Source of the DNA: Pyrinomonadaceae bacterium
GTDB taxonomy: Bacteria; Acidobacteriota; Blastocatellia; Pyrinomonadales; Pyrinomonadaceae
Length of the DNA stretch: 64,000 nucleotides
NCBI GenBank assembly: GCA_014380365.1
Contig: JACMJZ010000026.1
Span: 124,001-188,000 of the forward strand
Direction of reading: 5' to 3'
Made by a program: the position numbers and the translations under genes. The first letter of the stretch is position 1. Every line of letters starts with the position of its first letter. Positions 47,525 to 63,512 of the stretch are shown piece by piece. A model generated the notes under the pieces. It was not told where the DNA came from. It made no database searches and saw only the letters and a program-made list of their open reading frames with translations.

Positions 47525-48001
47525 CTATTCCCTGACGACCTCAACTACTTGGGATTTTGATTGAGCCTCCGGCCAGTTGGGCAACAGTTGCCCTTCCCGA
47601 AGTGTCTCCTTCGGATTAGCAATGGCCATAACCTCGTAAGGCTTGCCTGAATGCTGTCCCAGCTCTCCAAAGTAGCAGAGGACTTTCCACCTTCCACCCT
47701 CCCTGACGGTTACGTTTGGCTGCACCCAATAGTCTGCTACTTCCATTGGATGGATGACTACCCACACCTGCGCGTTTGCGTCCGCTACGACTCCTTCCAC
47801 GAAGTGACGCGGCGCAACTTTGGCATGATCGCATGGCGCGTTAATTACGATCTTTCGGCTTGGATCTGGAGACGGCGCGCCGCAGGGCGTTACAGATGAA
47901 GGAGCTTGGCCGTTCGTGGAGGTCTGTAGCGCGGTACTGCAGCCCGACATGACCACGCCCGCACATAGAAACAATATTGGTAACGCTGTTCCTTGCGGCA
48001 T
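47525..48001 (-). CDS. Lipoprotein with a single beta-domain
   Basis: This 158-residue product begins with a lipoprotein signal (LPILFLCAGVVMSGC, Cys about 21), with AAAGGAG before the ATG. The mature part, after a low-complexity linker, is one domain containing INAPCDHAKVAPRHFVEGVV, WVVIHPMEVADYWVQP, GGRWKVLCYFG and PYEVMAIANP. The same order of motifs is seen twice in the neighbouring 360-residue membrane protein and once in the GH16-like protein, so it is a repeated module of this locus. It is the last gene of the long minus-strand run. Function is unknown; it is likely a periplasmic or surface binding part. Confidence 0.8.
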   Translation of the reverse strand: MPQGTALPILFLCAGVVMSGCSTALQTSTNGQAPSSVTPCGAPSPDPSRKIVINAPCDHAKVAPRHFVEGVVADANAQVWVVIHPMEVADYWVQPNVTVREGGRWKVLCYFGELGQHSGKPYEVMAIANPKETLREGQLLPNWPEAQSKSQVVEVVRE

Positions 48002-48014
48002 TCGAATTTCTCCT

Positions 48015-49097
48015 TTACTTTCTTCGGATGACAGTTACCGAGTTAGAGACCACGGCATCTGGGGGATCTTTCATTAACGGCCCTGCAGACAAACTGGAGG
48101 TGGTGGCAACAATCTGAATCTCGTACTGCTCCCCAACGCCGACTTCTACGCCGCCAAACCTGGCGTTTCCACTGAAGGTACCGTCATTACGACTTATCGA
48201 CGCGGGTCGATCCTGAACATAACGAGTACCAACTCTAAGCGACTTTACAACGATGTAATGAGTCAGGTCCGGAACGGAAGTCTTGCCGCTAATAGCGGCA
48301 TCCACGCTCACTTCCGCGCCATTGACTGGAGTGTTGATAAGAATCACCTCTGAAGGCTTTGTGCGCCTGACGGTTACAGGTTCAGAAAGGATAGCATCGT
48401 CGGGGATTTTATCCAGAGTACCTGGTTCCAATTTGCTCAAGGTCGCCATCACGCGGATGGTAAATTCATCGTCCTCTCCGACTTTGATATCACTTCCGCC
48501 ATCGCTAAACCTGGCCTCCCCGCTGAATGAGCCGTCGGGACCGACTGAAGCGGGCTGAATTCGAGCGGTTCCGGTCCTAACCATCGTCACTAAGAGGTAG
48601 TGATTCCGGTCCAGAAATGGCGTTATGCCGCGAACCTTTTGACCGAGACCTACGCTGGAAAGTTCAGGAGGAGAAGTGATGATCAACTGCGTCTGGGCGA
48701 ATTTTCTTTCAGCCTTTTCGGCGCTTCTATTATTACTGATTATCCCTATGACAACTGTCGCGATGAGGGCAAGAATCGCAACGATGACGGCAATAATAGC
48801 CATCAGCAGTTGCCTCCTGGTCGTATTCTCGCCGGCTTTGATTGCATGTAATATTTTGTTGAGAAGGTTGAGAGACTCTCTACCCGGTTCAGACGAAGGT
48901 GTGTCCGGGTTGCGCGAAGGCTGCTTTGCCCTCCCTCGGTCATCGTCAGGTTGAGTACTGGGTGGACGGCGCTGGCCTTTCCGTTCTTTCGCCATCCACT
49001 CCTGGACACGTTGCACCTCAGCCTCAGCTCTTTTGATAGCTGAATCAAGCTGCGCGTCGCTTTCACCTGGCAAATCTGGCGGGTCGTCCTTATTCAT
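48015..49097 (-). CDS. Single-span membrane protein with two beta-domains
   Basis: The 360-residue protein has a charged cytoplasmic N-terminal part (1-~90, Arg/Asp/Pro-rich), one membrane segment (LLMAIIAVIVAILALIATVV, about 100-120) and an extracytoplasmic part with two related domains: ITSPPELSSVGLGQKVRGIT ... GSFSGEARFSDGG ... FTIRVMATL and INTPVNGAEVSVDAAISGKT ... GTFSGNARFGG ... YEIQIVATT. These match the module of the next lipoprotein. GGAG lies eight bases before the ATG. Gap to the next gene is 13 bases, so they are cotranscribed. Confidence 0.82.
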   Translation of the reverse strand: MNKDDPPDLPGESDAQLDSAIKRAEAEVQRVQEWMAKERKGQRRPPSTQPDDDRGRAKQPSRNPDTPSSEPGRESLNLLNKILHAIKAGENTTRRQLLMAIIAVIVAILALIATVVIGIISNNRSAEKAERKFAQTQLIITSPPELSSVGLGQKVRGITPFLDRNHYLLVTMVRTGTARIQPASVGPDGSFSGEARFSDGGSDIKVGEDDEFTIRVMATLSKLEPGTLDKIPDDAILSEPVTVRRTKPSEVILINTPVNGAEVSVDAAISGKTSVPDLTHYIVVKSLRVGTRYVQDRPASISRNDGTFSGNARFGGVEVGVGEQYEIQIVATTSSLSAGPLMKDPPDAVVSNSVTVIRRK

Positions 49098-49160
49098 TAA
49101 TCATACTCCGCTTTCATACGGCATTCGGGAAGCGATTCCACCCTCCCAACACGCACTTCG

Positions 49161-50342
49161 CTACCCACTTCCCGGAACGAACTCAAACTTCTCTATGATG
49201 ATCTCTACCACTCCATTGTCAGTTGGTGGTTGGCCATTGATCAGCCAAAGATTCATCCGCGCATTCTCATCGCCTGCTTGCGGGATACCTTCTGCGAAAC
49301 TATGTTTTCGGATGATCGCATTGTCGTGGCCGGGCCCGCTGTTCAAGCCCATTAGACTTTGGAAAGAAACGCTGTTCGGTTCCCAGCGAAACCAGTGCAT
49401 TGTTTTATCCAATCGGCGAGGAATCTGAAAGCGAACTATATTTTGTGGACGGGTGTAGGGTTGAATTACGAACTGTGCGTTCTTGTTGTTGGCATCTCCC
49501 CAACGGGAAATTTCAATATCTATTTCGCGATGACTGTATGCCGGATCATCCGACCAGGTGAACATTCCCAGCACAACTCCAGGATCAAGAACGTCCGCCT
49601 TGGTATCAAGATAGAATCGGTAAGTTCCGTAACCGAAACTTTTCTCTGAAATAACTTCGGCGCAATACCAACGTTCGCCGCGCTTGGTAATGCGCAGGTG
49701 TAGTCTCCCTTTGGCGTCAACCTCGACGTTGTTACCGCTATCTGAAAAATAATTGGGTCCGGGGCCTACTCGTTCGCTACTCGACTTGACTCTCCATTCG
49801 TACCCTGAGAACTGGATAGTCCTGACCTTCGCGGTTGTATCGTTGCGTGCGTCATGAGTCTTCACATTCGGGACGCTGGCAGCAACTCGAGCAATCGCCA
49901 GCACGGGACCTACGAGGTTAGGCAGGGTGTCGGTCGTGGCCGGCGGTTGATACGAAGAGTCGACCAACAACGCAGCATATTCGTCGCCGAGGTGCGTCGC
50001 GGCTTTCCACTTGCCATCTTTCGCGATAGCTGTGTAGGGCGAAGCTGCGTACGGTTGCACGTACCAGGTGTTGGTGCGTGCGAAAATCACCACCTTAAGT
50101 TGGGTTACATTCGCCGCGCTTGCCGTGCCCGCAATCGAGCCCATCGAGTCAGGCCCCGCGCCTTTGGGAGGGACAAGAGTGATTGTGATAGTCGTCCGTG
50201 CGGTTGCTTCGTGCAATTTTTCGAGTCTCGAGGCGTTAGCCTGAACGGGAAACGCGTACAGAGTGATAGCCACAATCATCAAGCACGCGCGCAGGCGTGA
50301 ACTCAAATATTGCTGATGTAGTATTAACCCTCGCCCTAACAA
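49161..50342 (-). CDS. Secreted GH16-like protein with N-terminal beta-domain
   Basis: The 393-residue product starts at a TTG two bases after the stop of the upstream gene, whose last codons contain AGGAGG, so translation is coupled. A signal peptide (LMIVAITLYAFPVQA) and a beta-domain follow (GSIAGTASAANVTQLKVVIF ... WYVQPYAASPYT ... GKWKAATHLGD), the same module as in the two genes downstream. From about residue 185 comes a GH16-type jelly roll: SEKSFGYGTYRFYLDT, the catalytic-type motif REIDIEISRWG (ExDxE, about 271-275) and WFRWEPNSVSFQSL. GH16 enzymes cut beta-glucans and galactans. Active residues look intact. Confidence 0.82.
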   Translation of the reverse strand: MLGRGLILHQQYLSSRLRACLMIVAITLYAFPVQANASRLEKLHEATARTTITITLVPPKGAGPDSMGSIAGTASAANVTQLKVVIFARTNTWYVQPYAASPYTAIAKDGKWKAATHLGDEYAALLVDSSYQPPATTDTLPNLVGPVLAIARVAASVPNVKTHDARNDTTAKVRTIQFSGYEWRVKSSSERVGPGPNYFSDSGNNVEVDAKGRLHLRITKRGERWYCAEVISEKSFGYGTYRFYLDTKADVLDPGVVLGMFTWSDDPAYSHREIDIEISRWGDANNKNAQFVIQPYTRPQNIVRFQIPRRLDKTMHWFRWEPNSVSFQSLMGLNSGPGHDNAIIRKHSFAEGIPQAGDENARMNLWLINGQPPTDNGVVEIIIEKFEFVPGSG

Positions 50343-50344
50343 AA

Positions 50345-50692
50345 TTACTTTGCCCTCCTATACCGGAATTCGCAGTTCTCATCATTTCGAAATGTCAAGA
50401 CTTCATTAGTTACTTCGAACTCATAAACTCCGGGGCCGAACCGAGTGTCCAACTTGATTCGATTGCTATCAACCAACTCATATTTGCCGCCATTCCAATG
50501 CAGGAGTCCCCCAACGTAAGTTCCATTGTCAAAGAACTCGACCTTGCTGGGATACGCCGCGTCACATGACGCCCCGTTTACTTTGTTCCATTGGCCTACC
50601 AAGTTGCGTTTCGCGCTGCACGCCGGAAACGAGACAACGAGAACCAGCGAGAGAAGCAGAAAGGCGCGCCGGACTCTACTTGTTAGGTTCAT
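50345..50692 (-). CDS. Small lipoprotein, lipocalin-like
   Basis: The 115 residues have a lipoprotein signal ending SFPACS (Cys about 25), followed by NLVGQWNKVNGASCDAAYPSKVEF and short beta strands to the C-terminus, resembling small lipocalin-like proteins. GGAG precedes the ATG. The function is unknown. It sits between the channel fusion and the GH16-like gene and is part of the same run; the 255-base gap before it could contain an internal promoter. Confidence 0.75.
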   Translation of the reverse strand: MNLTSRVRRAFLLLSLVLVVSFPACSAKRNLVGQWNKVNGASCDAAYPSKVEFFDNGTYVGGLLHWNGGKYELVDSNRIKLDTRFGPGVYEFEVTNEVLTFRNDENCEFRYRRAK

Positions 50693-50947: not shown

Positions 50948-52726
50948 TCATGTCGGATTGCGTCCGGGAAAATTCGCCTTTCTAACTCTCGGATTTTCAA
51001 GGGTCGACTCGTCCTGCGGTTCGGCTTGGTCGCCAATAACCCCCGGTAAGCGTGCCTTTTCATCTTGCTTGTCGCCTTTAATTGAGATGAGGGCGTTGAA
51101 GAAAACTACGAGGAAGAGCACCTCACATATATTCGCAAGAGAAGTAACGAACTTGGCATAAGAAGTCGTAGGCATTATGTCGCCATACCCAGTTGTGGTG
51201 ATCGTGTAGATCGAGAAATACATATAATCAATTAACTCCAAGGGCTTTGACTGACTTTGAGCGAGGTGCTCTTTCTGATCTTCTTGTAGACTTGTCAGTT
51301 TAATATTTGCTTCATCCTGTCCTGCTGTCAGCCTTCTTTCCTGATCGGGCGGTAGAACGACCCCTGTATCTCTGATCTCCTCAATAGTGGCAATAACAAC
51401 GCGCTTTTGCTGTGCCGGGAGTATGTCGTCCTGCGCCTCGGTTGACATTCGACGTTCGATTTGATCAAGAAAGAACTTTCGTTCCGAATTCGGATGAATG
51501 TCTATTTTTGCCAATTCAGAGGGGGGAAACATCGCGTGGGTAATCGCCCCGCGATTTATCCGCGCCAACGGTGCATCAGCAGCAGCGAAGATCGTCCAGC
51601 GGATATTGTCGACGTTAAGCCCGTTAATGCGCAGCGCATCCAGTATTTGATATTGCACATTCTCAGCTCTTGATCGTGACAGTTCGTAGTTTGACGCATA
51701 ACCTGACCCACTGGCGTATATGGGTTCTTTATCTGAGTGGCCAAGTAAGTTAATCTTTATTCTCGTATCGTTTTCAATTGCTTTCCGTAATTTCGCAATG
51801 AGCGCCTGATGGCTACAGGCGTTGAATACCTTCGTTGAATATTCTGTTTGAAACCGTTTTGGGTTGCTGCCATCGCAGTTTGCATCGCTCTGACTTACGT
51901 TTGCCTTTCTCTCATCAAAGTAAAAGCAAAACTCTTCGTCCTCATTGTTCGCAGAAGCGGCTCCTCTGCCTGACGGTGGGATCGAGGCACCGCTTCGCTC
52001 GTCTTCTCCCGTTTTGGCGTTTTCTTTGCTGGATGAACCGGAAGGATGTGCTTTGTCGTTATCGTCACTACTGCTCAGATTCACCATGTACAATGCAGGC
52101 ATCTTGTTCTTGGTTTTCGCGAGCGTCGATTGGTCATGGAAGGCAAGCGCGAAGCCGAACAGATATGCAACGCCTAGAAAAAGAACAAAGAAGAGCGCTA
52201 TTGCCCATAGAGGCTCGTTCTTGATACCCGCGCGCATCTCATCGCACTTACTCGGCAGCCAACTTGTTGATTCTTCGTTGGTCGGTTCCATGATAAAGGC
52301 GGCTGTCATAAACGCGACGAAGAGCAATAAGAGGGACACGACTCCCAATGCAAGCAGCGAGATCGCCTGGAGCCAATAAGAATGGCCATGAAATGATCGT
52401 TGAGAGAACACCAGCCAAAGAACGCAATAGGAAAAGATGCATCCAGACGCCGCCCAAAGATTCAATCGGTAATAACCCACATGTCCAGGTTTCTTAGCGT
52501 TGTTGAGCCTGTGCCAGAGAATCACCGACCCCACTACCAAGGCCAGAACCGGCAAAAACAGCAGACCCGCTGTGGAGAGGTCGTTAATGCCGTTTGATAG
52601 AAGTGCGCAAGCTACGAAAACGAGAGTTATGACTACGGAGAACTTATAGGGCGAAAGCTTCTGGCTCGCGTCCATTTGTGCAGCGTTTCCCGATTTTGGA
52701 GCGCTCGGTGGGGTCGGGTGAGACAT
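50948..52726 (-). CDS. OmpA-like domain / ion-channel pore fusion protein
   Basis: AGAGGAGG precedes the ATG. The 592 residues show about five N-terminal membrane spans (1-~205), a disordered Ser/Asp/Lys stretch, a domain of the OmpA/MotB peptidoglycan-binding type (KINLLGHSDKEPIYASGSGY ... NYELSRSRAENVQYQIL, about 325-375), a charged helical linker, and then a pore module: YMYFSIYTITTTGYGDIMPT with the potassium selectivity filter TTGYGD (about 513) and a following span VLFLVVFFNALISI. A wall-binding-type domain inside a K-channel protein is very unusual. It would link the wall or a ligand to ion flow. Orientation of the middle domain is not certain. Confidence 0.85.
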   Translation of the reverse strand: MSHPTPPSAPKSGNAAQMDASQKLSPYKFSVVITLVFVACALLSNGINDLSTAGLLFLPVLALVVGSVILWHRLNNAKKPGHVGYYRLNLWAASGCIFSYCVLWLVFSQRSFHGHSYWLQAISLLALGVVSLLLLFVAFMTAAFIMEPTNEESTSWLPSKCDEMRAGIKNEPLWAIALFFVLFLGVAYLFGFALAFHDQSTLAKTKNKMPALYMVNLSSSDDNDKAHPSGSSSKENAKTGEDERSGASIPPSGRGAASANNEDEEFCFYFDERKANVSQSDANCDGSNPKRFQTEYSTKVFNACSHQALIAKLRKAIENDTRIKINLLGHSDKEPIYASGSGYASNYELSRSRAENVQYQILDALRINGLNVDNIRWTIFAAADAPLARINRGAITHAMFPPSELAKIDIHPNSERKFFLDQIERRMSTEAQDDILPAQQKRVVIATIEEIRDTGVVLPPDQERRLTAGQDEANIKLTSLQEDQKEHLAQSQSKPLELIDYMYFSIYTITTTGYGDIMPTTSYAKFVTSLANICEVLFLVVFFNALISIKGDKQDEKARLPGVIGDQAEPQDESTLENPRVRKANFPGRNPT

Positions 52727-52848: not shown

Positions 52849-53544
52849 TTACCGCCGATAGATCAGCACCAATTCAATGCGACGGTTGCGGCGGCGTTGT
52901 TCATCTGTCACGTTATCCGCTTGCAATTTTTCTAAGTTATATTCAGTCGTGCCTGCGCTGCGCTGTACGGACTGGTACTCGCCGAAAGAGGTCACCGACA
53001 TCAAGTGCTCCGCAGGTTGAATGCCGACTTTGTCCCGCAAGAAACTGAACACTGCAATGCCCCTGTTGGCGGCCAGAGTGACGTTTGACTCATATCTTTG
53101 GCTTGGATTCGTGTCGGCGTGTCCCTGAACCTGGATCTCTCTAATGAGCGCCAACTGCGCCCGCAGTTTCGTGCCGACGACCGTCAATACTTGCTCGCCC
53201 GCGGACTTGATCTCGATGTGATCCGGTTCGAACAGAATCTTGTCACTAAAAGTTATGCGTTGAGAATTAAGGTCGTTGTGGATCTCGATGTCGGGATCCT
53301 TGTTCTCGTTGAAGTAAATCCCAAAGGTATTGTCAGCTAGTTTGCGAGGCTTCACCTTGTAGTCGTCAGCGATGGAATTGATCATGCTCATCTGATTCGC
53401 CCCGACCTCTTTCAAGTTGACAGTTCCTACCGCTACGACGGCCGTTACCAGGAACAGTGCGAGGCATAGAACCAACACCAACGCGAGCATCATGTCGGCG
53501 AACGAAGGCCAGAAATTAAAACTGATGAGATCCTCGTCTTGCAT
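52849..53544 (-). CDS. MotB/ZorB-like stator protein (OmpA family)
   Basis: The 231-residue protein has an N-terminal membrane span FWPSFADMMLALVLVLCLALFL with Asp17 in the ADMM motif, the place of the proton-carrying Asp of MotB and ZorB. It continues with a periplasmic linker and an OmpA-like peptidoglycan-binding domain: ITFSDKILFEPDHIEIKSAG, IQVQGHADTNPSQRYESNVT, LAANRGIAVFSFL and the terminal RRRNRRIELVLI. The ATG directly abuts the TAA of the MotA-like gene (no gap), with GGAGG in that gene's last codons, so the two are coupled. Together they should form a 5:2-type ion-driven motor. Confidence 0.9.
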   Translation of the reverse strand: MQDEDLISFNFWPSFADMMLALVLVLCLALFLVTAVVAVGTVNLKEVGANQMSMINSIADDYKVKPRKLADNTFGIYFNENKDPDIEIHNDLNSQRITFSDKILFEPDHIEIKSAGEQVLTVVGTKLRAQLALIREIQVQGHADTNPSQRYESNVTLAANRGIAVFSFLRDKVGIQPAEHLMSVTSFGEYQSVQRSAGTTEYNLEKLQADNVTDEQRRRNRRIELVLIYRR

Positions 53545-55350
53545 TTAGCCTCCCCGCCTTGAATCGTCGATCATCCTGGTCAATTCCGGCAGCATGCCAC
53601 TTAGCTGGGTGAGAAGGGGCACCAGACGGTTGTCGTCCCGTGGCTGCTTGCGAACTTGCGCACTGAGCGCACTCACGCCACTGCCCAGAGCAGCTACGCT
53701 TTGCGAGAGGGCATTGGTGTCCTTACTTAGTTGCTGCCCGTGCGTGGCAAAACTACTACTGCTCTCAGAGAAGTTGTTGCTGCTATCGGTGAGTTGTTGC
53801 AGCAGTTGTGGAATCTGCTTGCTGAGGCTTTCCAAAGTTTTCAATTGCTGCTGATTCGTTTCGTTTTGCGTGGCAAACTCTCTTTGCAGTTTGGTACGCC
53901 ATTCGTTGGTGTACTCGTTGAAATTGGAAAAGGTGTCAGTAAATTTCTGTGCGGCAGTGTTAAGCGGTGCATCCAGTTGGCGTAACTTTTCGCCCAAGCT
54001 GCCAAGTTGCACCTCCAGAGATTCTTTAATTTCACGCAGCCGTTCCTGCAATTCCGTTTGCACCTCGCCTAGACTTGCGGTGAGGTTTTCTCGCAGCGGC
54101 TTGCCCAGGGCGGCTTCGAGGGCTTGGCCGATTTCCTCATTGCGCTGGCCCAAACTTTGGAAGGCTTTTTCCGCTCCGACCAACACTGCGCCCAACTTCT
54201 CATCAATCCCTTCCCGATTGGCTACGTAGGCCGCTTCATAACTTTGGAGGGCCTGGAGTACTTGCACCAGCTGCAGGTTCCCACTATTCAGCTGCTCCTG
54301 AATGCGTTGTCGAAACTCCTCTGAACCGGCGATGTTGCGCTGGACGCTCTCCTGAAATGCTCTGGACTCCTGAGTCATTTGGTTATAGAGCTTGCGCAGA
54401 TCGTCCTGAAAGGGTGTTAGCGCATTCACGCCTTCAACGAACTTCTGGGAAAATGTGCTGAGGGTGTTAGCAACTTTTCCCATCTCTTTGAGAGCTTCGG
54501 TGCTGAGGCCGAGAGTCTCCCTGAGGGTGCCGGCTTTTTGTTGGAAATCGTCGGCGAACTCGGTGACCTGCTTTGCTGCCTCGACGCTCCGTTCCATTTG
54601 CTCTCTACTAAGGTGCAGTCTTTCCTGCAGTTTCTGGGAAGGAGTGGGAACAAGTTGCGGAATCCAGACCGTCAACGTCGTACGTTCGAGTAAACCACCC
54701 AGTGGCAACGCGACGGCACGTAAGTAGAACGCGAAAAGCAAAACGCCAAATACCGTAAGCGAGACTCCCAGGATGCTGGGGGCAAATGCGCCCTTCAGAG
54801 TCCCGAGCAACTGCTGCAAGCTGAGGCTCAGAGTGTCGTTGTTGAGTTGCGACGTGCCCCGCAACAATTCATCCAGAGCAGCCATCGTATCCGCCAGACC
54901 GAAGAGTGTTCCCAGCAAACCCAGGATAATAAAGATCGACAGCAGCGAGCGGTGCAGGGTATTGATTCGGAATAGTGCGTCGCTCGTATTTTTGATGAGC
55001 CCGCGTGCGTCAAGCTGGCTCTCGTTCCGCCCTGCCTCGAAGATCGCGCGTAAATGGCTGGTGATCGGACTCCTCGTCGGAAGAGCTTTCGCCAGCTCAA
55101 ACGAGTTGAAGATCTCTTCGTTTGAGCGCTGCACGGCCGAAGCGGAATCAGCATTCTCGTCGCTCACGAGGCGTTCTGGAACTCGCAGCCCGCTGACATC
55201 CTGACAGCGCGCGATTTGGACCGCGTACTGAAGATGCCGCCACAAGCTGACCACGAGCAGACCAAACCAGAAACCGAATAGCACTACCAATAGGTAGACA
55301 ATCCAGAGTGCGATCGGATTCTGTGGGATTAGATAATCAAGCAGTCTCAT
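53545..55350 (-). CDS. MotA/TolQ/ZorA-like channel protein with long coiled-coil tail
   Basis: In this 601-residue protein, membrane segments lie at about 13-38 (IALWIVYLLVVLFGFWFGLL), 135-160 (SIFIILGLLGTLFGLADTM) and 188-212 (GAFAPSILGVSLTVFGVLLF), the core of the MotA/TolQ/ExbB family including the GLLGTxxGL motif. From about 220 to the end it is a continuous helical, Gln/Glu/Leu-rich stretch of around 380 residues. ZorA of the Zorya antiphage systems has the same design: a MotA-like core plus a long intracellular tail. No zorC, zorD or zorE partner follows here. Confidence 0.9.
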   Translation of the reverse strand: MRLLDYLIPQNPIALWIVYLLVVLFGFWFGLLVVSLWRHLQYAVQIARCQDVSGLRVPERLVSDENADSASAVQRSNEEIFNSFELAKALPTRSPITSHLRAIFEAGRNESQLDARGLIKNTSDALFRINTLHRSLLSIFIILGLLGTLFGLADTMAALDELLRGTSQLNNDTLSLSLQQLLGTLKGAFAPSILGVSLTVFGVLLFAFYLRAVALPLGGLLERTTLTVWIPQLVPTPSQKLQERLHLSREQMERSVEAAKQVTEFADDFQQKAGTLRETLGLSTEALKEMGKVANTLSTFSQKFVEGVNALTPFQDDLRKLYNQMTQESRAFQESVQRNIAGSEEFRQRIQEQLNSGNLQLVQVLQALQSYEAAYVANREGIDEKLGAVLVGAEKAFQSLGQRNEEIGQALEAALGKPLRENLTASLGEVQTELQERLREIKESLEVQLGSLGEKLRQLDAPLNTAAQKFTDTFSNFNEYTNEWRTKLQREFATQNETNQQQLKTLESLSKQIPQLLQQLTDSSNNFSESSSSFATHGQQLSKDTNALSQSVAALGSGVSALSAQVRKQPRDDNRLVPLLTQLSGMLPELTRMIDDSRRGG

Positions 55351-55424: not shown

Positions 55425-56519
55425 TCAGTCACCGAGCCCTAAATCCAATTCGCCGGGCGACTTCAACACCCAACAGTCCCCATCCCGTTTGAAGATGGCC
55501 GGTTTTCGTACCTGATAGCGTGAGTAGGACCGTGACGGATCGTAGGCCGGATTGCCGAACATTTCGCCAAGAGCGCCGGCGTTATAGCTGACCGGACCGA
55601 TTGTTAAACCCAATCGCGGAAAGACTTCATACTGATTCCCTCCGGATTTTGGAAACGCAAAAAAATCACCATCAGTGGTTTCTTTGAACTCTGGCTTAAT
55701 TGTCGCAGTGGGGTTCTGCCTGCGTTCGACCGCATTCACAGTGCCCACCCTCACCGGTTGGTGTCTTTCACGAAATCGTTCCCGGGCAACATTGTCGGTG
55801 ACTGCTTGGTTATAGAGACCGATAATGTCGGATTCCTTGATGGCACTGGAGCGCCGCCGAATAATAGTTGGCTGACCGGCGACGGATTTCGCGGCTACTG
55901 GCACATCCTCGTCAACCGAGCTCCTCATTGTTCTGAAGTCGTCTTCAAGAATATCGGCAGTCGTCTCAGCCTCCGAGTCTTCACCCGTGGGATAACCGAA
56001 GTCTTCTTCAGTAGCGTTTTGCGTCGCCTTGGCGGCCGCCGCCCTTTCGGATTCCGTTTTCAATTTTAAGACGATAGTTAGATCGGTTCTGATTCCCGTT
56101 ATGGCTTCCTTGATTTCTTTCAGACGATCGGCGAGTACGTCGGACTCAGTGGCCTGCGGCAGGGGTTTAGGCGTGGTTAACGACGAGAAGAATCGCCTGA
56201 TTAGACCCGGCTTTCCTGAATTATCAACAACTGTTTGGTCCCCAGGCAATTTACCTGGTGGTTTGGATTTCTCGCCTCCCAGTAACTGGTTGACCAACTT
56301 CCGGACTTTTTTGACTGACTCCGTCAAAAAAACTAATTGGTTCTCGGTTAAATCTGAAACCATAAGAGCAGTAGCGCTCTGATTGTGACGCGTTCGACGA
56401 CTCCGTACGAAGTACCCCGCCCCAAACGCCAGAAACATGAAGAAAAGGAGCATCCCTGCGTACAAGAGCTGCGCTATTGAACCCGCGATTAGTTGCATCA
56501 AAAGCGTCATGGGATTCAT
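55425..56519 (-). CDS. Single-span membrane protein of unknown function
   Basis: The 364-residue protein starts MNPMTLLMQLIAGSIAQLLYA; membrane segments cover about 8-37 (YAGMLLFFMFLAFGAGYF). The rest is cytoplasmic: a helix with LTENQLVFLTESVKKVRKLV, a variable acidic middle, and a C-terminal beta-rich domain (FFAFPKSGGNQYEVFPRLGL ... KPAIFKRDGDCWVLKSPG). No family is recognised. It starts 11 bases after the actin-like ATPase gene and comes just before the motor genes, so it may join the ATPase to the membrane. Confidence 0.8.
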   Translation of the reverse strand: MNPMTLLMQLIAGSIAQLLYAGMLLFFMFLAFGAGYFVRSRRTRHNQSATALMVSDLTENQLVFLTESVKKVRKLVNQLLGGEKSKPPGKLPGDQTVVDNSGKPGLIRRFFSSLTTPKPLPQATESDVLADRLKEIKEAITGIRTDLTIVLKLKTESERAAAAKATQNATEEDFGYPTGEDSEAETTADILEDDFRTMRSSVDEDVPVAAKSVAGQPTIIRRRSSAIKESDIIGLYNQAVTDNVARERFRERHQPVRVGTVNAVERRQNPTATIKPEFKETTDGDFFAFPKSGGNQYEVFPRLGLTIGPVSYNAGALGEMFGNPAYDPSRSYSRYQVRKPAIFKRDGDCWVLKSPGELDLGLGD

Positions 56520-56530
56520 CGATCACGAAG

Positions 56531-59500
56531 TCAACCGCCCAGTCGAATCTCAAGCCAGTGGCGAAGCGCCATGATGAAGATCGGTTCGACTACGATATTT
56601 GCTGTTGTCTGCGAGTTGCGATATCGGCTCAGGCTCTGACCGAGCCGGTTAATTATTTCTTTGGTTTCTTCCTTAGACATGTCTACTGTCGAAACAAGAC
56701 CTCTCGTCCGGGCAAATTGATTAAAGGCAATAAGAAAATCCGGCAATCGCTCCAACTTTTCCGGAGGGGCCAAGTTTCTGGTAAAACTCTCTGGTGTGAG
56801 AGTGGTGTTCCATGGGAGCTTACGTGCGGCATGATCTTTCTCGTCTTCATCATTCGAGGTCGGCCATTCGGTTGGCGTTCCTTCGGCAACGAAACACTCC
56901 CCCGCAAGAACTTTGCCCTCCTGATTACCGCCCTGGAGACTCGAGTCGGACACCAAGCCATACGCGGCCTCCATTTTCGGCTCGGGGCTAAGGATCACGT
57001 TGAACGCTTGGTCGTCGGTTAATCCAGCCGCCTGTGAGAAAACTGTCTTGTAGAGCATATTGATTAACCCATCGCCATCGATGTCCAGCCAACGGAAAAT
57101 GCGCGAGCCGTTCCCTCCCACATAAACGTTAGGAATGTTCTGGTAGTACACACGGATCTGCATGAGGTATCTCAATAAGGAACCCACGTAATAGAAGAGC
57201 CCAGCGACGCCCAAGGCGAGATGCTGCTGCAATGCCTTTACCTGTTGCGTCCCCGCATGGACGGGGAGCTCCGTGAAGATCAAGTTGCTGTTGTACCGCA
57301 GCAAGGCGTCGGTCAAGGCATAGTAAGGCTTCTTGTCACTCTTGCTTTTTCCTTTTTCATCGGGCAACTCACTGACCCCGACGCCGAATAATCCAAGGAA
57401 GTCTGGATGATGCCAAAGGTAATTTGAGAAGATGTTTCTTCCTGCGAGAAGCACGGATGTTTGCCAGACAGGTTTATCATTCTGCCAAATGGAGATGTCC
57501 GAGGTGCTCCCCCCGATATCTATGAAGATAGTACCCACTGCGGTGGCTGCGCTGAGGTGGTTCACAAAATATAGTGCGGCGGCCACGCTTTCCGTTTGCT
57601 TTTCGTTTTTAGCAGTTCGACTCAACCCTGACTGGGCGACGCAATCCGACGTGACTTGATTCCAAATCTCCGAAAAGCCCACCATTTGCTCAGCGCTGAA
57701 GGCGGTGGGATAGGAGAAAGCCCAACTAGCTTTGCTTGCGCCAGCAACTACCAGCTCTGCTGCCGTTTGTAAGCACAGTTGCGCCAAGAATGCTTTTACC
57801 ATCCTTCTGTCACTGTCGTCAGAAGACCATTTGAGGTCTAAGGCCAAGCCCGGTTGGTTGGCATCAAAGGTTCCCGCGCCCGGCAACAAGTAGATGTGTC
57901 CATTGAGAAATGGATGGAATTGCTGAGCGTGCGAATTCTCAAAACTCTGGAAGAAGCTTAGGAGAGGCATTTCGCTTTCGCTTTTTGGCAGGAAGAAGTT
58001 AGTTAGTTGCGCCTGCGCAATGTCACCTGATGCAGTGACGCTTAGTTTCCTTTCGGCGAATTTAACAGGGAACCTCTGCTCACCCACTCGTGCGCAGACG
58101 GTTGTGCTGGCCGCTCCGAAATCTATTCCAACTCTATAGGACTTTCCGCGCGGTAGAATAGGTTCTGGTTGGGTAAGCAGCAGGAGACCAGCATCTTGGT
58201 GCTCCATCTGATTGGTCTGTGCATTAGCGATGGAGGCTCGGCAGACCATCGCCTCCGGATAATTTTCCGTACGCCAGTATCGACGTTTCCCGCGACCTGT
58301 TAATGGCACTTCACTTTCGGTGGACTGGCCCGGTGCGTAGGGCTTTGCGGCAAATGTGCTGCGCGCATCATCCGTTGAAAAACACGTGTAATATGCCTTC
58401 CAGTCGGGGGCTTTGAAGTTCGGCCATACCTCCAAAATGGGTACATTGTCGAGGGTTTGAATCTCTTCCCGCCGGTAGAGCTTCGTAAGTTCGATGGTTC
58501 GTCCTGCCGCATTATTCAAGTCGGGTCCAGATAGTTTGAGAAACAGACGAATCCTAAGTCCATCCGGCGTTTGATCCCACCGTACGCGTTGCGCCAAGTC
58601 GTCCGATGTGAGGTGCTGCATTAGTTCCCATCGCAGCGGCAGGATGGGCGTAACGCTGTTGCTGCCGCCTGGAAGCGTGAGGGACTGAGTGCCGGTGCCT
58701 TGCGTACCCGGAAAAGCGTTTTCCTGGAAGATCACGAACAGTGTTTTAGTGAAAAAGTCTGCGCCCTTCCAGACGTCAGCGTCCTTGACGGTGACCTTCG
58801 TTGAGGCCAGGGTTTGAGCTCCGTCAACGGTCACATCTTGCAGAGACATGTCCCACTGCTCGGCGATGCCTCTGTCAAAGACGAGTAGAGGTTTAACTGG
58901 CGAGCGCCCCGCTGAAGGAATGAGCTTTACGTGGGACTCATCAGTCAAATTGCCGTCCGCGGGCTTATCGAGGTACTTGAAGACTCCCGCTTCCTTGCCT
59001 TGCATCCCAAAGCCGGACTGACTAAGACTGCAAGTTCCCGCACCGAGTTGATCCCTGAAGGTTCCCAACAATCCCGAAAGAAGATCCCAGCGATCGATCT
59101 TGCGATCCGGGTGTACGTCCAACTTGGCGATGAGCTGGGTGAGCCAGCCAGAGAGAATTTCCTTATAGCGGGGCGGAAGAAATGGTACTGGGTCTTTGAG
59201 GTGCGCCCCTTTGTACCAGCTGACTTCCTGGCTACTTATCCGGTCTAAGTAATCTGTTGCCGTTGCAACCAAAGTCGTTGGCGACGTCATGCCGATTGGC
59301 TTACCGTTAAAGAGAAACACATACAGTGATCGCCATGATGTATCCGAAGCCAATGTAGCCTTAGGCAGTAGCTTTGATAGCGTTTGCAAGAAATCTCGCT
59401 GTCCAGGAGCTTCTTCTTCCTGCTCCTCCGAGTTTCGTCTTACTGGTGCGGAAACTGGCAGAGTTATCGGGCTCACAGTCAAACGATCGAGCTTCAGGAC

Positions 59501-59773
59501 ATCCTTAAGCGCGATCATTGCCAGCAGGCCGCGCCATTCGCCATGAATGCGATCATGTAGCACATGTTCAGTATCTAAGAGAGCCATTTCAAAGAGGAGC
59601 GGGCGCGCCCACATGTCGGGAATCGAGCTGATTTCCGTTTCTACCTTGTCAACTTTCAATCCGCCGCTCAGTTTGTCGAGCGAGTCGCGCGTGCGGACGT
59701 CCCACTTTCCGGACTCTTTGAAGAGTTTTACGTTATGAGTTGTCTTCAGTTTGGGTAGTATTGGAAATGTCAT
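56531..59773 (-). CDS. Large protein with C-terminal actin/Hsp70-like ATPase domain
   Basis: The 1080 residues start at an ATG with GGAGG ten bases upstream. The first ~540 residues match no family I know. An actin/Hsp70-fold ATPase follows: phosphate-1 loop VGIDFGAASTTV (about 549), phosphate-2 loop TIFIDIGGSTSDISIW (about 750) and adenosine motif NVYVGGNGSRIFRWL (about 884). The last 130 residues are an extra tail with NRLGQSLSRYRNSQTTANIV. It lacks a signal peptide and membrane segments, so it is cytoplasmic. Whether it forms filaments or acts as a chaperone-like switch cannot be told. The DnaJ-type zinc-finger gene in the same run favours a partner of Hsp40 type. Confidence 0.85.
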   Translation of the reverse strand: MTFPILPKLKTTHNVKLFKESGKWDVRTRDSLDKLSGGLKVDKVETEISSIPDMWARPLLFEMALLDTEHVLHDRIHGEWRGLLAMIALKDVLKLDRLTVSPITLPVSAPVRRNSEEQEEEAPGQRDFLQTLSKLLPKATLASDTSWRSLYVFLFNGKPIGMTSPTTLVATATDYLDRISSQEVSWYKGAHLKDPVPFLPPRYKEILSGWLTQLIAKLDVHPDRKIDRWDLLSGLLGTFRDQLGAGTCSLSQSGFGMQGKEAGVFKYLDKPADGNLTDESHVKLIPSAGRSPVKPLLVFDRGIAEQWDMSLQDVTVDGAQTLASTKVTVKDADVWKGADFFTKTLFVIFQENAFPGTQGTGTQSLTLPGGSNSVTPILPLRWELMQHLTSDDLAQRVRWDQTPDGLRIRLFLKLSGPDLNNAAGRTIELTKLYRREEIQTLDNVPILEVWPNFKAPDWKAYYTCFSTDDARSTFAAKPYAPGQSTESEVPLTGRGKRRYWRTENYPEAMVCRASIANAQTNQMEHQDAGLLLLTQPEPILPRGKSYRVGIDFGAASTTVCARVGEQRFPVKFAERKLSVTASGDIAQAQLTNFFLPKSESEMPLLSFFQSFENSHAQQFHPFLNGHIYLLPGAGTFDANQPGLALDLKWSSDDSDRRMVKAFLAQLCLQTAAELVVAGASKASWAFSYPTAFSAEQMVGFSEIWNQVTSDCVAQSGLSRTAKNEKQTESVAAALYFVNHLSAATAVGTIFIDIGGSTSDISIWQNDKPVWQTSVLLAGRNIFSNYLWHHPDFLGLFGVGVSELPDEKGKSKSDKKPYYALTDALLRYNSNLIFTELPVHAGTQQVKALQQHLALGVAGLFYYVGSLLRYLMQIRVYYQNIPNVYVGGNGSRIFRWLDIDGDGLINMLYKTVFSQAAGLTDDQAFNVILSPEPKMEAAYGLVSDSSLQGGNQEGKVLAGECFVAEGTPTEWPTSNDEDEKDHAARKLPWNTTLTPESFTRNLAPPEKLERLPDFLIAFNQFARTRGLVSTVDMSKEETKEIINRLGQSLSRYRNSQTTANIVVEPIFIMALRHWLEIRLGG

Positions 59774-59806
59774 GGGTTGTAGGCCTCCGGAGATTAGCTC
59801 TGAGTT

Positions 59807-61318
59807 CTAACCAAGCTCATCAGTTTTCACTTTGCCGCAAGCATCGTACAAAGCTCGGGCAAATATGCCGACACCTTCCGCTTTCGGGTCTTTCACTCTT
59901 ATGTCACTCATTCTTTCCCACAACTCACTCAGCGCGCCTGGATACTCCTTCGTGACAGGCAACAGTAGATTGCCGAATGCCTCGCGGCTGAATTCAGCGG
60001 GATTTTTGAGCTGCACAATCGGCCTGCCGTTTTCATCATCGATCGTCTCGGCAAACGCCGTGAAGTTGACTAAGTGCCCGCCCGCAGCAACATTGTCTCC
60101 GGTTTGAGATTGTTCGATATTCGCTAACCAAAGCAGAAAACCCTCACAGTAAGTCTTGAGCTGCTTGAGTTCTTTCTGCATGCCGATCTTCAGGTCAACC
60201 TTTCTGCGCTTGAAGAGGTTCACATACCAGGGTGCTCGGTAATCCCGGCCCTCGTTATTTATGCTCTCCAGCATGGGGTAATAGGACGAAAGGTAAGCAA
60301 AAGCGAAGCGAGCGAGTTGGTTAACTTTTGCTTTCAGCTGGAGGAAGCCCGGATCGTAGGGAAGATCGGCCCAACCGGTCTTATCTTTCAGCTCACGCGA
60401 AATATGCGGATAGCCCTGAACATTATCGTTAGCAAAGAAGTGAATTGAGGCAAGCGCTGCGTACATTTCCAGCAAGTGAGGTTCATTTTCCTGTTCCTGG
60501 CCGCCGATGCTGGATGTTCTCATCGGTTTCAAAGTCTCATTTCCTAGGAGGTAAACGGCATTGCAAACCTTGAGTTCGTCTTGATGGTGATAATAGTTTA
60601 AAGCTGTCTGTGTACTGAGGAGGAATGTGTCGGCGTCAACCCTCATTCGCTCCTTCTTTACCGGGTCGAAGGAAAAATAAGGCAGCATCAAGACGCTACC
60701 CAATTGGAAGCGGTCGGCTAGCTTGGATGAGAATTCATTCTTCACTAGCCGGCCAATCGTGGGAACGCCCGAAGCTCCCGTACCGCCGAATATTGAGCCA
60801 AAGAGCATGACCTTGGCACCTTCGCCCGCACCAACGTCAAGACCGATCTGATCTCGCAAGCTAGCCCACGGTTCCTCCCCGCCTAGCTTTACGGCAGCAG
60901 CCATCACCGCGGCCCCTATCGATGGATGACCCCGGAATCCAAATTCGAGCGAGGTCTGTTTCTCTTTTGGACTGTAAAGCACGTCGAATAGTTGGGCTGC
61001 GGGCCGGGCCAAGGTGTTGTAGTTGAAGAACTGATCCAGACGCTCTGGTTTGTCCTGCAGCGGCGACCAAATATCGGGCTTTGCTATCCGCAAGTCATTC
61101 TTGAACAGGTCTGTGGCTCCTACCCTGAGTTGCTTACAATCGTGGTAGTTTTGCAGTAGTTGGCCAGCGCGTTTCAGACTGCCATTAGCGCCATCGGGGT
61201 CCACGAAGAGACTGAAAAAGGATCGGTTGTCAGGCATGAGGCCGGCAGCACAAAGATGAATGAAGGACTCAACGCATTTGGCACCGGTGCCGCCAATGCC
61301 GATGACGTAATAACTCAT
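59807..61318 (-). CDS. Tubulin/FtsZ-like GTPase
   Basis: The 503-residue protein opens with the dinucleotide-binding loop YYVIGIGGTGAKCVESFI and carries the tubulin signature FGSIFGGTGASGVPTIG at about 175-190, where FtsZ has GGGTGTG. Typical segments FFSLFVDPDGANGSL and GSVLMLPYFSF lie between and after. It matches the Tubulin_2 group of prokaryotic tubulin-like proteins rather than FtsZ or TubZ. GTP binding is very likely; filament formation is inferred. AAAGGAAG precedes the ATG. Confidence 0.88.
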   Translation of the reverse strand: MSYYVIGIGGTGAKCVESFIHLCAAGLMPDNRSFFSLFVDPDGANGSLKRAGQLLQNYHDCKQLRVGATDLFKNDLRIAKPDIWSPLQDKPERLDQFFNYNTLARPAAQLFDVLYSPKEKQTSLEFGFRGHPSIGAAVMAAAVKLGGEEPWASLRDQIGLDVGAGEGAKVMLFGSIFGGTGASGVPTIGRLVKNEFSSKLADRFQLGSVLMLPYFSFDPVKKERMRVDADTFLLSTQTALNYYHHQDELKVCNAVYLLGNETLKPMRTSSIGGQEQENEPHLLEMYAALASIHFFANDNVQGYPHISRELKDKTGWADLPYDPGFLQLKAKVNQLARFAFAYLSSYYPMLESINNEGRDYRAPWYVNLFKRRKVDLKIGMQKELKQLKTYCEGFLLWLANIEQSQTGDNVAAGGHLVNFTAFAETIDDENGRPIVQLKNPAEFSREAFGNLLLPVTKEYPGALSELWERMSDIRVKDPKAEGVGIFARALYDACGKVKTDELG

Positions 61319-61349
61319 GGTCTACTTCCTTTCTGAAGGTGAGACGACA

Positions 61350-61817
61350 CTACCAGCGACGTACTGCCATTGCGCCCCATGGCATATATTTGAACGACGA
61401 TGGTGACAAGAACAGTGTGGCCAGGTAGAACACAGCCAAGTTGTTAGCTAGATAAAACACCCAGGATAGCCGTCCCCATTCCTGACCTGCCGGTGTGAAG
61501 TACATTGCCGGTACGACCCCAACTAGCGAGACGATGAGAAATATGAACCACAGTGTGCGTGTTCTATTCGTCTTGGTCCAATAGTTCAAGTTAACAACCC
61601 ATTGACCCCAAACAAACCACACCATTGCCATCAGCAACGCAGCACCCGCACTTACTGCTGCCCAGTAGCGGAATGATTCACGCCAAGCGTCCAGCGTAAT
61701 ATCAGGCCCGGTACTCACGAGAGAATCCAGCAACTGATCCTCGCCGGGAATAACAAAGAAAAAAAAGATAAGCGCGATGCCTATCATCCCAAACATAAAG
61801 CCGATTGGTTTCAACAT
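61350..61817 (-). CDS. Four-span membrane protein
   Basis: The 155 residues have four hydrophobic segments: IGFMFGMIGIALIFFFFVIP, YWAAVSAGAALLMAMVWFVW, TLWFIFLIVSLVGVVPAMYF and WVFYLANNLAVFYLATLFL, with a short periplasmic loop after the first. No family is recognised. AGAGGAG lies five bases before the ATG. It sits between the VWA-like lipoprotein and the tubulin-like gene, so it may be a membrane anchor for either. Confidence 0.8.
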   Translation of the reverse strand: MLKPIGFMFGMIGIALIFFFFVIPGEDQLLDSLVSTGPDITLDAWRESFRYWAAVSAGAALLMAMVWFVWGQWVVNLNYWTKTNRTRTLWFIFLIVSLVGVVPAMYFTPAGQEWGRLSWVFYLANNLAVFYLATLFLSPSSFKYMPWGAMAVRRW

Positions 61818-61834
61818 AAGAACTCCTCTGAAAT

Positions 61835-63238
61835 CTACTTGTCGACCTGGATGTAAAGATGGAGGTCGCCGACTTTGGGCGGGGTAGTGCTGAGAACCGC
61901 GCCTTGCAGAGTGCCCAGGAAATTCTCCAGGTTGTAAGTCTTCGCCCCGTTGAAATCATGCGGGTTCCGATGCCAGGTTTGGATCTCGTCGTCACGCATG
62001 TTCCACAGGGGAATCCAGTCTGCCAAAGTGTTAGGCTTGGGACGCAAGACAATTCGATACTGATAGATTCCAGCGCCAGGTAGATCGCTCACCTCAATGT
62101 CGACCCTGAGTTGTAGCTTGTCGAACGGCGTTTGCTGCGGCAGAAGGTTTGCTACAACGTGAAAGGCTTTTTGGGCTTCAGCGTTTTCGACCGGAACGAG
62201 TACTTTTCCCCCCTTGTCTTCGCCTTTCCAAGCTGTAACTTCCGACGTCAAGTCGCTGCCGTATCCCATTACGTTGGGCAGGGCGGCATCGTAGCGTAAA
62301 TCGATGATCAACTTCGCTTTGGTTCTGCCCTTGCTAATCTTGAACGCCTTTACGTGATTACCTCTGTAGTCGCCTGAGACCAGGTTGCTACTGCTGATCT
62401 CGCTTACCCTATCGGCCGTCTTAAGTTTCGCTCCAGAAAAGGACGCGAGACGCGATGACAGATGGCGCGAAAGAATCAGCTCATGCTTGTCTGGGAAAGT
62501 ATTTACGCCGGTCGCGGCAAGGACATCGAAGTAATGTGCGATATCGGCGTGCGTTCCAAAAGCCAGCAAGTAAAATGGCCGGTTTCTTTCTGGTTTATCA
62601 CTCTTATAACCGAATGAATATGCGCTTGGGCCAACGTCATAAACTGAGCCCTCAAACTGACTGCGGATGGCATAGCTACCAATAGCCAGGTTGTTTGCGA
62701 TGAACTTCTGTTTGAGTTTTTCACTTAGCTGATTGACGTCAGCGTTAGATTGAAATAGGTCAGTGACGATAACCGTCAAGTGGTCTGGCTGGGCCTTGTC
62801 GATGACTCGTTCAATTAACGTCTTCCGATTGTATTTGCTGTCGCCATAGAAGGCGGGCTTAACTGCCTCTAGATACGCACGGCCCGGCAAGGGGGCGATG
62901 TCATCGCCAAATTTATAGAAGCTGACCTCGCCACCCTTCCACCCCTCAATTACGCTTCGTTCAAGCAAGGGAACTGTTTGTTGATAAAAGCTCGAGCTTT
63001 GCGTAGAAACAAATCCTCTCATCGAAAGTGTCGCGTCGAAGAACACGTCAACCTTTAGTGTCTGAGATACCGGTTCAAAGTCTTCTTTGATTTCGGGCGG
63101 GGGCAAGCCTTTCCGTTTGGCGCAACCAGAAAAGCCTGAGGTGAGAAGCAAACACGCTCCCAGAGAGATGATCACAAGTAGTCGTATCATTCTCCGGTTA
63201 ACAAACCAAAAGGATCCGCCAGATCGATTCGTCTTCAT
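61835..63238 (-). CDS. VWA-like lipoprotein
   Basis: The 467-residue product (ATG 63238) has a short basic extension, then a lipoprotein signal (LLVIISLGACLLLTSGFSGC). An alternative ATG at 63190 starts directly at that signal, but its ribosome site is too close. The mature part opens with VDVFFDATLSMRGFVS (about 64), a MIDAS-type DxTxS motif, and contains LTVIVTDLFQSNADVNQLS, the expected second metal-site strand. The von Willebrand A fold binds ligands via a metal. The C-terminal 150 residues look beta-rich. It is tethered to a membrane facing the periplasm. Confidence 0.82.
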   Translation of the reverse strand: MKTNRSGGSFWFVNRRMIRLLVIISLGACLLLTSGFSGCAKRKGLPPPEIKEDFEPVSQTLKVDVFFDATLSMRGFVSTQSSSFYQQTVPLLERSVIEGWKGGEVSFYKFGDDIAPLPGRAYLEAVKPAFYGDSKYNRKTLIERVIDKAQPDHLTVIVTDLFQSNADVNQLSEKLKQKFIANNLAIGSYAIRSQFEGSVYDVGPSAYSFGYKSDKPERNRPFYLLAFGTHADIAHYFDVLAATGVNTFPDKHELILSRHLSSRLASFSGAKLKTADRVSEISSSNLVSGDYRGNHVKAFKISKGRTKAKLIIDLRYDAALPNVMGYGSDLTSEVTAWKGEDKGGKVLVPVENAEAQKAFHVVANLLPQQTPFDKLQLRVDIEVSDLPGAGIYQYRIVLRPKPNTLADWIPLWNMRDDEIQTWHRNPHDFNGAKTYNLENFLGTLQGAVLSTTPPKVGDLHLYIQVDK

Positions 63239-63362
63239 TTGCAAAGTGTGCGGCCCTGATTAAGATTGAGGGTTAGTTGCAGAAGGTAACAACATCATTC
63301 GCTGGACTCGTATAGACTGCAAATGTGGTTTTCGCTTGATTCGCCTTCAGGCATGAGTTTCG

Positions 63363-63512
63363 TCAAGTTCGACCCCTGCCCTTGCAGACGGTGCAGTTGC
63401 CTGAACCGCCGCATTTTGAGCACACGGATTTAGTGAGCATGCCTTCTTTGCCGCCTTTGCCATGGCACTTCGAACACTTGCCAGTGCCGCTACAGCCTTT
63501 GCATTCCGACAT
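63363..63512 (-). CDS. DnaJ-type zinc-finger mini-protein
   Basis: This 49-residue product is too short for common gene-size cut-offs. It consists almost only of four CxxC pairs of the DnaJ central-domain type: CKGCSGTGKCSKCHGKGG at 4-21 and CSKCGGSGNCTVCKGRG at 31-47. AGGGAG (63522-63527 on the opposite strand as CTCCCT) lies nine bases before the ATG. In DnaJ these pairs bind two zinc ions and hold client proteins. There is no J-domain here. Being the first gene upstream of the VWA-like gene, and in one run with an Hsp70-fold ATPase, it may be its cofactor. Two open frames on top of it in other phases have no such pattern. Confidence 0.85.
   Translation of the reverse strand: MSECKGCSGTGKCSKCHGKGGKEGMLTKSVCSKCGGSGNCTVCKGRGRT

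What the first reader, a model, noticed from the sequence alone, without database searches (positions are those of the whole stretch)
47525..63512. Undescribed thirteen-gene envelope machine with motor, actin-like and tubulin-like parts
Thirteen consecutive minus-strand genes with short gaps encode a DnaJ-type zinc-finger protein, a VWA lipoprotein, a four-span protein, a tubulin-like GTPase, an actin/Hsp70-like ATPase, a MotA-like channel with a 380-residue tail, a MotB/OmpA-like stator, an OmpA/K-channel fusion and secreted parts with a repeated beta-domain. The families are recognised by their motifs. Their union in one operon matches no system I know. It could be a defence system, an envelope-stress machine or a surface-moving apparatus; sequence alone does not decide.
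Basis: partly seen in the sequence, partly recalled or inferred. Interest (0 to 1): 0.95.

Follow-up and report, generated by a model that had tools for sequence, protein, structure and literature searches.

The report
Motor-coupled tubulin and actin envelope cassette
An Acidobacteriota genome carries, in a variable chromosomal spot, a conserved set of seven or eight genes that joins an ion-driven membrane motor to relatives of tubulin and actin, a combination seen in other bacterial phyla whose job is still unknown.

Summary
The run of minus-strand genes is real, but thirteen genes are not one system. Seven travel together elsewhere: VWA-like lipoprotein, 4-span protein, tubulin-like GTPase, giant actin/Hsp70-like ATPase, single-span adaptor, MotA-like channel with a ~375-residue tail, MotB-like subunit; the OmpA/K-channel fusion has one relative. 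The zinc-finger ORF and the last four genes had no relative in the related stretches. Predicted models support the tubulin fold (Z 16) and actin/Hsp70 fold (Z 23). Of 40 genomes with the tubulin-like gene, 39 have the actin-like gene and 11 this MotB. In 84 Poribacteria the tubulin-like gene and this MotB occur in 12 genomes each, 11 shared; contig ends explain the mismatches. A published relative exists: the FtsZl1/VWA/OmpA operons of Makarova and Koonin 2010, predicted to remodel membranes; the text I read names neither a motor nor an actin-like partner. Best reading: a ZorAB-like, peptidoglycan-anchored ion motor energises or gates a tubulin/actin NTPase pair at the inner membrane, for envelope remodelling or surveillance. 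Anti-phage defence is a live rival; no ZorC/D/E was found and neighbourhoods are not clearly enriched in defence genes. All function is inferred.

The parts
61835..63244 (-). VWA-like lipoprotein (469 aa as listed; the true start may be a later ATG)
   Evidence: family found in 47 of 85 related stretches; within three ORFs upstream of the tubulin-like gene in 30 of 64 loci with 3 kb held, on the same strand in 16; MIDAS-like motif and near-invariant lipobox Cys; no Pfam hit
61350..61817 (-). four-span membrane protein (155 aa)
   Evidence: family in 71 of 85 stretches; within three ORFs upstream of the tubulin-like gene in 54 of 64 loci
59807..61318 (-). tubulin/FtsZ-like GTPase (503 aa)
   Evidence: Tubulin_2 in 22 of 22 family members at E <= 0.01; AF2 model pLDDT 82, Z 16.3 to CetZ1, 206 residues aligned between 1 and 322
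56531..59773 (-). giant actin/Hsp70-like ATPase (1080 aa), fold in residues ~543-1057
   Evidence: AF2 model pLDDT 81; Z 22.9 to Hsp70 Ssb 5tky, 22.2 to MreB 4cze; in 39 of 40 genomes with the tubulin-like gene
55425..56519 (-). single-span adaptor (364 aa) with a conserved C-terminal ~135-residue domain
   Evidence: family HMM of 137 positions in 93 ORFs of 45 of 85 stretches, often several per locus
53545..55350 (-). MotA/ZorA-like channel subunit (601 aa) with a tail of about 375 residues that resembles coiled-coil families
   Evidence: invariant GL-x-GTLFGL-x-D and K-x-A-x-APSI blocks in 12 sequences; MotA in 14 related loci; weak ZorA models E 4e-6; coiled-coil family matches
52849..53544 (-). 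MotB/ZorB-like stator (231 aa) with OmpA-type peptidoglycan-binding domain
   Evidence: PADLOC ZorB E 2.4e-15; OmpA; Asp17 aligns with the Asp of FWISYADLM of chain 8qyd_F
50948..52726 (-). OmpA-like domain fused to a K-channel-like pore (592 aa)
   Evidence: Ion_trans_2 E 8e-11, OmpA only E 0.011; one relative, in L011/L018, 27% identity
63363..63512 (-). 49-aa CxxCxGxG zinc-finger ORF; probably not part of the conserved system
   Evidence: no second CxxCxGxG pair in six frames of loci L011-L099 other than this gene; reading frame checked
47525..50692 (-). four adjoining genes (115 aa; GH16-like 393 aa; 360 aa; 158 aa), three with a shared beta-domain; probably passengers
   Evidence: no relative in 85 related stretches; beta-domain similarity; GH16-like only by NCBIfam E 9e-5, far under cut-off

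Best explanation
The conserved genes encode one envelope-spanning, accessory machine. MotA/ZorA-like and MotB/ZorB-like subunits form an ion-driven motor in the inner membrane; the OmpA-type domain grips or senses peptidoglycan, and the long tail of the MotA-like subunit reaches into the cytoplasm. There it turns on, moves or gates a tubulin-like GTPase that works with the giant actin/Hsp70-like ATPase, held at the membrane by the single-span adaptor and the four-span protein. The VWA lipoprotein is the metal-dependent contact on the periplasmic side. The likely task is to sense and remodel or repair the envelope. Shown: genes, predicted folds, motifs, co-inheritance. Inferred: complex formation, 5:2 stoichiometry, ion flow, nucleotide hydrolysis, filament formation and the task.
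For: Four-span, tubulin-like, actin-like, adaptor with a nearby VWA gene (divergent in most Cyanobacteria) recur in Acidobacteriota, KSB1, Nitrospirota, Poribacteria, Cyanobacteria and some Selenomonadales; MotA follows in 14 loci, MotB directly after it in 12 of these. 39 of 40 genomes with the tubulin-like gene have the actin-like gene; 11 of 40 have this MotB, the 11 whose loci carry MotA. In 84 Poribacteria: tubulin-like 12, MotB orthologue (379 bits or more; next 101) 12, both 11, same contig and 6.4-6.8 kb apart in 10 of 11; Fisher p 8e-12, not corrected for relatedness. In G420, G429 and G443 the contigs end before the partner's expected place. D17, N154, L157, R161 of the MotB are invariant in 11 sequences. 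ZorAB needs its tail, peptidoglycan binding and ion flow for function (PMC11890865, passages).
Against: The other 29 of the 40 genomes (Cyanobacteria, Selenomonadales) lack this MotB, so the core can exist without it. In one Nitrospirota genome (G341, L024) MotB lies on another contig than the core; whether that is a break was not checked. In 19 of 62 loci with 4 kb held downstream, all Selenomonadales, the actin-like gene is not among the next five ORFs. VWA is near in only 30 of 64 loci. MotA resemblance to solved structures is weak by sequence (E 0.26). No experiment, no expression data.
Confidence: 0.5

Rival explanations
1. It is a Zorya-like anti-phage system: the motor senses peptidoglycan damage at infection and the tubulin/actin pair is the effector that blocks the phage.
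For: ZorB-like E 2e-15 and ZorA-like tail; patchy, window genome or centre included: tubulin-like gene in 8 of 59 relatives, 10 of 297 of the phylum, 15 of 146 Cyanobacteria, 12 of 84 Poribacteria; variable chromosomal site with an empty counterpart; plasmid copies of the core in Cyanobacteria.
Against: No ZorC/D/E model hit in the nine operon proteins scanned or in 57 flanking proteins of related loci; no nuclease-like Pfam hit in the cassette; flanks hit 18 PADLOC families over 57 proteins against 9 over 23 control proteins, so no visible enrichment.
Confidence: 0.25
2. It is a transport or surface-movement engine: the motor drives secretion or adhesin movement, as GldLM does (recalled), and the cytoskeletal pair positions it.
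For: Ion-motor plus periplasmic VWA lipoprotein; secreted proteins follow MotB in seven Poribacteria loci and in the KSB1 locus; a reviewer of the 2010 paper preferred transport or signalling.
Against: No secreted substrate or outer-membrane pore is shared across the loci; the core exists without this motor in Cyanobacteria.
Confidence: 0.13
3. Two neighbouring systems: an FtsZl1-type VWA/tubulin/actin core, and an unrelated MotAB unit that merely sits next to it.
For: The core occurs without the motor; in G341 MotB is on another contig.
Against: Of 12 Poribacteria with this MotB 11 have the tubulin-like gene, and in the twelfth the contig ends before it; of 297 genomes of the window's phylum the MotB is in the window genome alone; on a tree of 83 tubulin-like proteins the 15 motor rows and three truncated loci form one side of a branch, support 86/74; counted strictly, with the truncated loci as lacking it, 4 changes.
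Confidence: 0.1

Closest known systems
FtsZl1 (Pfam Tubulin_2) operons, Makarova and Koonin 2010, PMC2875224
   Same: tubulin-like gene with VWA protein and OmpA-type proteins; a DnaJ-related Cys-rich domain is mentioned there; Cyanobacteria included
   Different: here the tubulin-like protein is 503 aa without a long coiled-coil region; an actin/Hsp70-fold partner and a MotA/MotB motor are not named in the text read; no P-loop GTPase or kinase found in the run
Zorya ZorAB, PMC11890865
   Same: MotAB-like motor, long cytoplasmic tail of the A subunit, peptidoglycan-binding B subunit, conserved membrane Asp
   Different: no ZorC/D/E found; neighbours are tubulin-like and actin-like
MotAB / ExbB-type ion motors
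   Same: membrane blocks of the MotA/ExbB family in most relatives, OmpA domain
   Different: tubulin-like and actin-like neighbours; no flagellar gene seen in the mapped loci by name, though flanks were not searched for them
Hsp70 / MreB superfamily
   Same: nucleotide-binding fold; invariant D551, G553, T557, D752, G754, T757, D759, G886, G887 in 22 sequences
   Different: 540-residue N-terminal part; single-sequence matches to MreB are weak

Membership tests
FtsZl1 / Tubulin_2 | Tubulin_2 (PF13809) profile match | tested here: met
   22 of 22 family members at E <= 0.01, best 2e-11; window protein E 1e-5 but 25.3 bits against a cut-off of 27
FtsZl1 / Tubulin_2 | extended coiled coil plus helical C-domain (majority architecture in the 2010 paper) | tested here: not met
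   503 aa; the model shows helices between 325 and 403 but no extended coiled-coil region; filed as a divergent short branch, not a typical FtsZl1
FtsZl1 operon | VWA partner | tested here: inconclusive
   conserved neighbour family with MIDAS-like motif, but no Pfam hit and no PDB relative
FtsZl1 operon | P-loop GTPase or Ser/Thr kinase partner (frequent, not universal) | tested here: not met
   no such Pfam hit in the run; a kinase gene lies just outside, window-equivalent 64069
Zorya | ZorA and ZorB | tested here: met
   as resemblance: ZorB E 2.4e-15; ZorA E 4e-6, partly coiled-coil driven; NCBIfam ZorB1 25.6 bits, far under its cut-off of 400
Zorya | ZorC plus ZorD/ZorE effector | tested here: not met
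   no PADLOC hit in nine operon proteins or 57 flanking proteins of related loci
MotB-type stator | membrane Asp and OmpA-type peptidoglycan domain | tested here: met
   D17, N154, L157, R161 invariant in 11 sequences; alignment to 8qyd_F; OmpA E 9e-11
MotA/ExbB channel | PF01618 match | tested here: inconclusive
   window protein 15.5 bits, under cut-off; 10 of 12 family members match at E <= 0.01
Actin/Hsp70 superfamily | fold and phosphate motifs | tested here: met
   Z 21-23 in the 50 rows shown; invariant motif residues in 22 sequences; my own strict regular expressions matched only some relatives
Active GTPase / filament former | nucleotide hydrolysis and polymerisation | not testable with these tools
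   needs biochemistry
GldLM / type 9 motor | GldL/GldM homology | not tested
   -

The most novel reading that the evidence does not exclude
A previously unrecognised class of energised cytoskeleton: a peptidoglycan-anchored, ion-driven motor whose cytoplasmic tail directly drives or gates a paired tubulin-like and actin-like polymer system across the bacterial envelope.
Probability: 0.4. Interest if true: 0.92.

Novelty: new variant of a known kind. Interest (0 to 1): 0.75.

Why it matters
No described bacterial machine that I know of joins tubulin, actin and motor families. The 2010 prediction left open how a cytoplasmic tubulin-like protein could act with periplasmic and outer-membrane partners, and a reviewer pressed that point. 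A MotAB-type bridge in one clade gives a concrete physical link and makes the question testable with point mutants.

Tried and rejected
Thirteen-gene unit: rejected, because five of the genes have no relative in the related stretches, with the flank limit told above. A whole-genome look for the 360-aa protein in 15 genomes with the core found nothing, without a positive control. Zorya membership: rejected, effectors not found. Of the ten proteins nine are operon proteins; the tenth, and one entry, was a 94-aa ORF in another frame over the zinc-finger gene, my slip; the right 49-aa ORF was scanned with Pfam, not with PADLOC. The 115-, 360- and 158-aa genes were not scanned with PADLOC.

Defence-island enrichment: 18 PADLOC families over 57 flanking proteins against 9 over 23 control proteins; the control is small and from one genome, so this says only 'no visible enrichment'. 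A rescan of 10 of the 57 gave a hit in 1, so most hits belong to proteins that I did not identify. I passed 57 of 77 listed flanking ORFs; dropped were those of L028 and L031 (16) and four Poribacteria genes after MotB; ORFs under 170 or over 900 aa and loci L029, L030, L032 were never listed.

Phage origin: no relative in 50,697 phage records at E 1e-5; five weak relatives (24-29% identity) in viral contigs. PDB sequence search gave nothing for the tubulin-like profile, only ribosomal proteins at E >= 0.03 for the VWA profile, chiefly coiled-coil or helical proteins in the 60 rows shown for the full MotA profile, one MotA/TolQ/ExbB chain at E 0.26 for its N-part. Literature for the combination: the searches gave, as far as listings and the passages I opened show, nothing closer than the 2010 paper; most listed papers I saw as listings only. 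The 2010 Additional files 5 and 6 may list the actin-like family without a name; not seen.
Full report
What is there. The window is from an Acidobacteriota-like genome: its same-class relative G047 holds a 90,321-base contig that matches in length and gene set the one listed as JACQDB010000032.1, 'Acidobacteria bacterium'. Thirteen minus-strand ORFs fill 47525-63512 with gaps of 0-255 nt. The stretch has 51.5% G+C, against 55.2-57.6% for 16-kb windows to its left.

Where it sits. In same-genus genome G005 the peptidase S46 gene (window 42686-44770) lies 53 bp from the relative of the UvrD-like helicase gene that in the window genome starts at window-equivalent 68645. About 23.9 kb, with the nuclease-like gene, the whole run, a kinase and a 463-aa gene, is thus absent there. 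Other same-genus genomes carry other genes next to the S46 gene (L111, L118). None of the 15 other same-genus genomes has a match to the tubulin-like protein, though several are incomplete. So the set is accessory and probably mobile. Plasmid copies of the core exist: Gloeothece plasmid Cy782204 has VWA (divergent), 4-span, tubulin-like, actin-like and two adaptor-family genes, and a Picosynechococcus PCC 7003 plasmid has VWA, 4-span, tubulin-like and actin-like genes, all recognised by my profiles. The record names the Gloeothece tubulin-like gene as such and calls the actin-like gene hypothetical.

The parts. The tubulin-like protein matches Tubulin_2, and its model (pLDDT 82) aligns with CetZ and FtsZ at Z 15-16 within residues 1-336. 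The 1080-aa protein has an actin/Hsp70 fold in residues 543-1057, Z 22.9 to an Hsp70 (5tky) and 22.2 to MreB (4cze), after a 540-residue N-terminal part that I could not assign. Motif residues are invariant in 22 sequences. The MotB-like protein has an invariant membrane Asp that aligns with the Asp in FWISYADLM of PDB chain 8qyd_F, which I recall to be E. coli ZorB. The MotA-like protein keeps the two channel blocks and a long tail. The VWA assignment rests on motifs only.

Who shares it. A scan of GTDB-220 contigs with the tubulin-like profile found 258 relatives; the best 80 were kept, so distant ones are not covered. I mapped these and five further stretches, 85 in all, one of which (L012) overlaps L018. 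MotA follows the core in 14 loci: Acidobacteriota 1, KSB1 1, Nitrospirota 2, Poribacteria 10; MotB follows it in 12. The three loci of the same branch without it (L021, L023, L025) end before its place. On a tree of 83 tubulin-like proteins (two short rows dropped) the 15 motor rows and those three form one side of a branch, support 86/74, short of firm; counted strictly the label needs 4 changes. Of 62 loci with 4 kb held downstream, 43 have the actin-like gene among the next five ORFs; the other 19 are Selenomonadales. Whole-genome search of 40 of the 80 genomes finds the actin-like gene in 39; the exception is a 1.3-Mb assembly whose locus shows a fragment. This MotB is in 11 of the 40, the 11 whose loci carry MotA.

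A test in both directions. In 84 Poribacteria, orthologues of this MotB (379 bits or more; eight further genomes have partial matches of 87-101 bits) occur in 12 and the tubulin-like gene in 12, with 11 in common; 1.7 would be expected by chance, Fisher p 8e-12, inflated by relatedness. In 10 of the 11 they lie 6.4-6.8 kb apart. In G443, where they lie on two contigs, and in the two genomes with only one of them (G420, G429), the contigs end before the partner's expected place. In 297 genomes of the window's phylum the tubulin-like profile hits 10 and the MotB only the window genome, which is counted in both; G047 was evidently not in that sample.

How it may work. ZorAB is reported as a 5:2 ion motor whose tail, peptidoglycan binding and ion flow are needed for defence (PMC11890865, abstract and other passages). 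By analogy the present motor would carry a signal or torque from peptidoglycan to cytosolic NTPases. That step is inference.

What is known. Makarova and Koonin (PMC2875224; parts 1-3 of 5 read and passages searched) described FtsZl1 operons with VWA, OmpA, kinases and GTPases and predicted membrane remodelling. 'MotA', 'proton' and 'Hsp70' do not occur in its main text. A 2023 paper on FtsZ/tubulin evolution treats the Tubulin_2 group as divergent and not directly related in history (PMC9871819, passages). A 2025 MotAB survey has no occurrence of 'tubulin' in its main text (PMC12505986, passages). The present set is therefore a motor-bearing variant of a predicted but, as far as I saw, untested kind.

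Noticed in passing
L011 15916-19830: An ORF of 1304 aa or more that looks RHS-like (recalled motif) interrupts the cassette between the 4-span and the tubulin-like gene in the closest relative.
   Followed up: no
L022, L026, L027, L029, L031, L033, L039, right after MotB: A conserved ~320-aa secreted, anchored protein with a GGGDCEDTT stretch that recalls transglutaminases (recalled); no Pfam hit at 0.001 for the one tested. L028 and L032 have an ORF of like size, not examined.
   Followed up: partly
L019 19927-21135: A second secreted protein that looks VWA-like follows MotB in the KSB1 locus.
   Followed up: no
L117 7943-7997 versus window 44770 to window-equivalent 68645: The interval next to peptidase S46 looks like a hot spot with different inserts in different species of the genus.
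   Followed up: partly
window 45736-46233: Low-complexity repeats read as AAHECGDAAHECGD in one frame.
   Followed up: no
L017 3070-5832: Protein kinase gene; 17-59 matches per genome in the genus, so kinases are abundant there.
   Followed up: no
L120-L124: Five viral-collection contigs encode tubulin-like relatives at 24-29% identity.
   Followed up: no
flanks in A8 (57 proteins): Hits to MADS, PDC-S32 and TIR defence models among some flanking proteins; owners not resolved.
   Followed up: partly
window 1-46000: Control proteins left of the run hit PADLOC IetA, TRIP13 and nicking-endonuclease models; owners not resolved.
   Followed up: no
window 47525-50692: Four genes, three sharing a beta-domain, one GH16-like; perhaps a surface-polysaccharide set.
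   Followed up: partly
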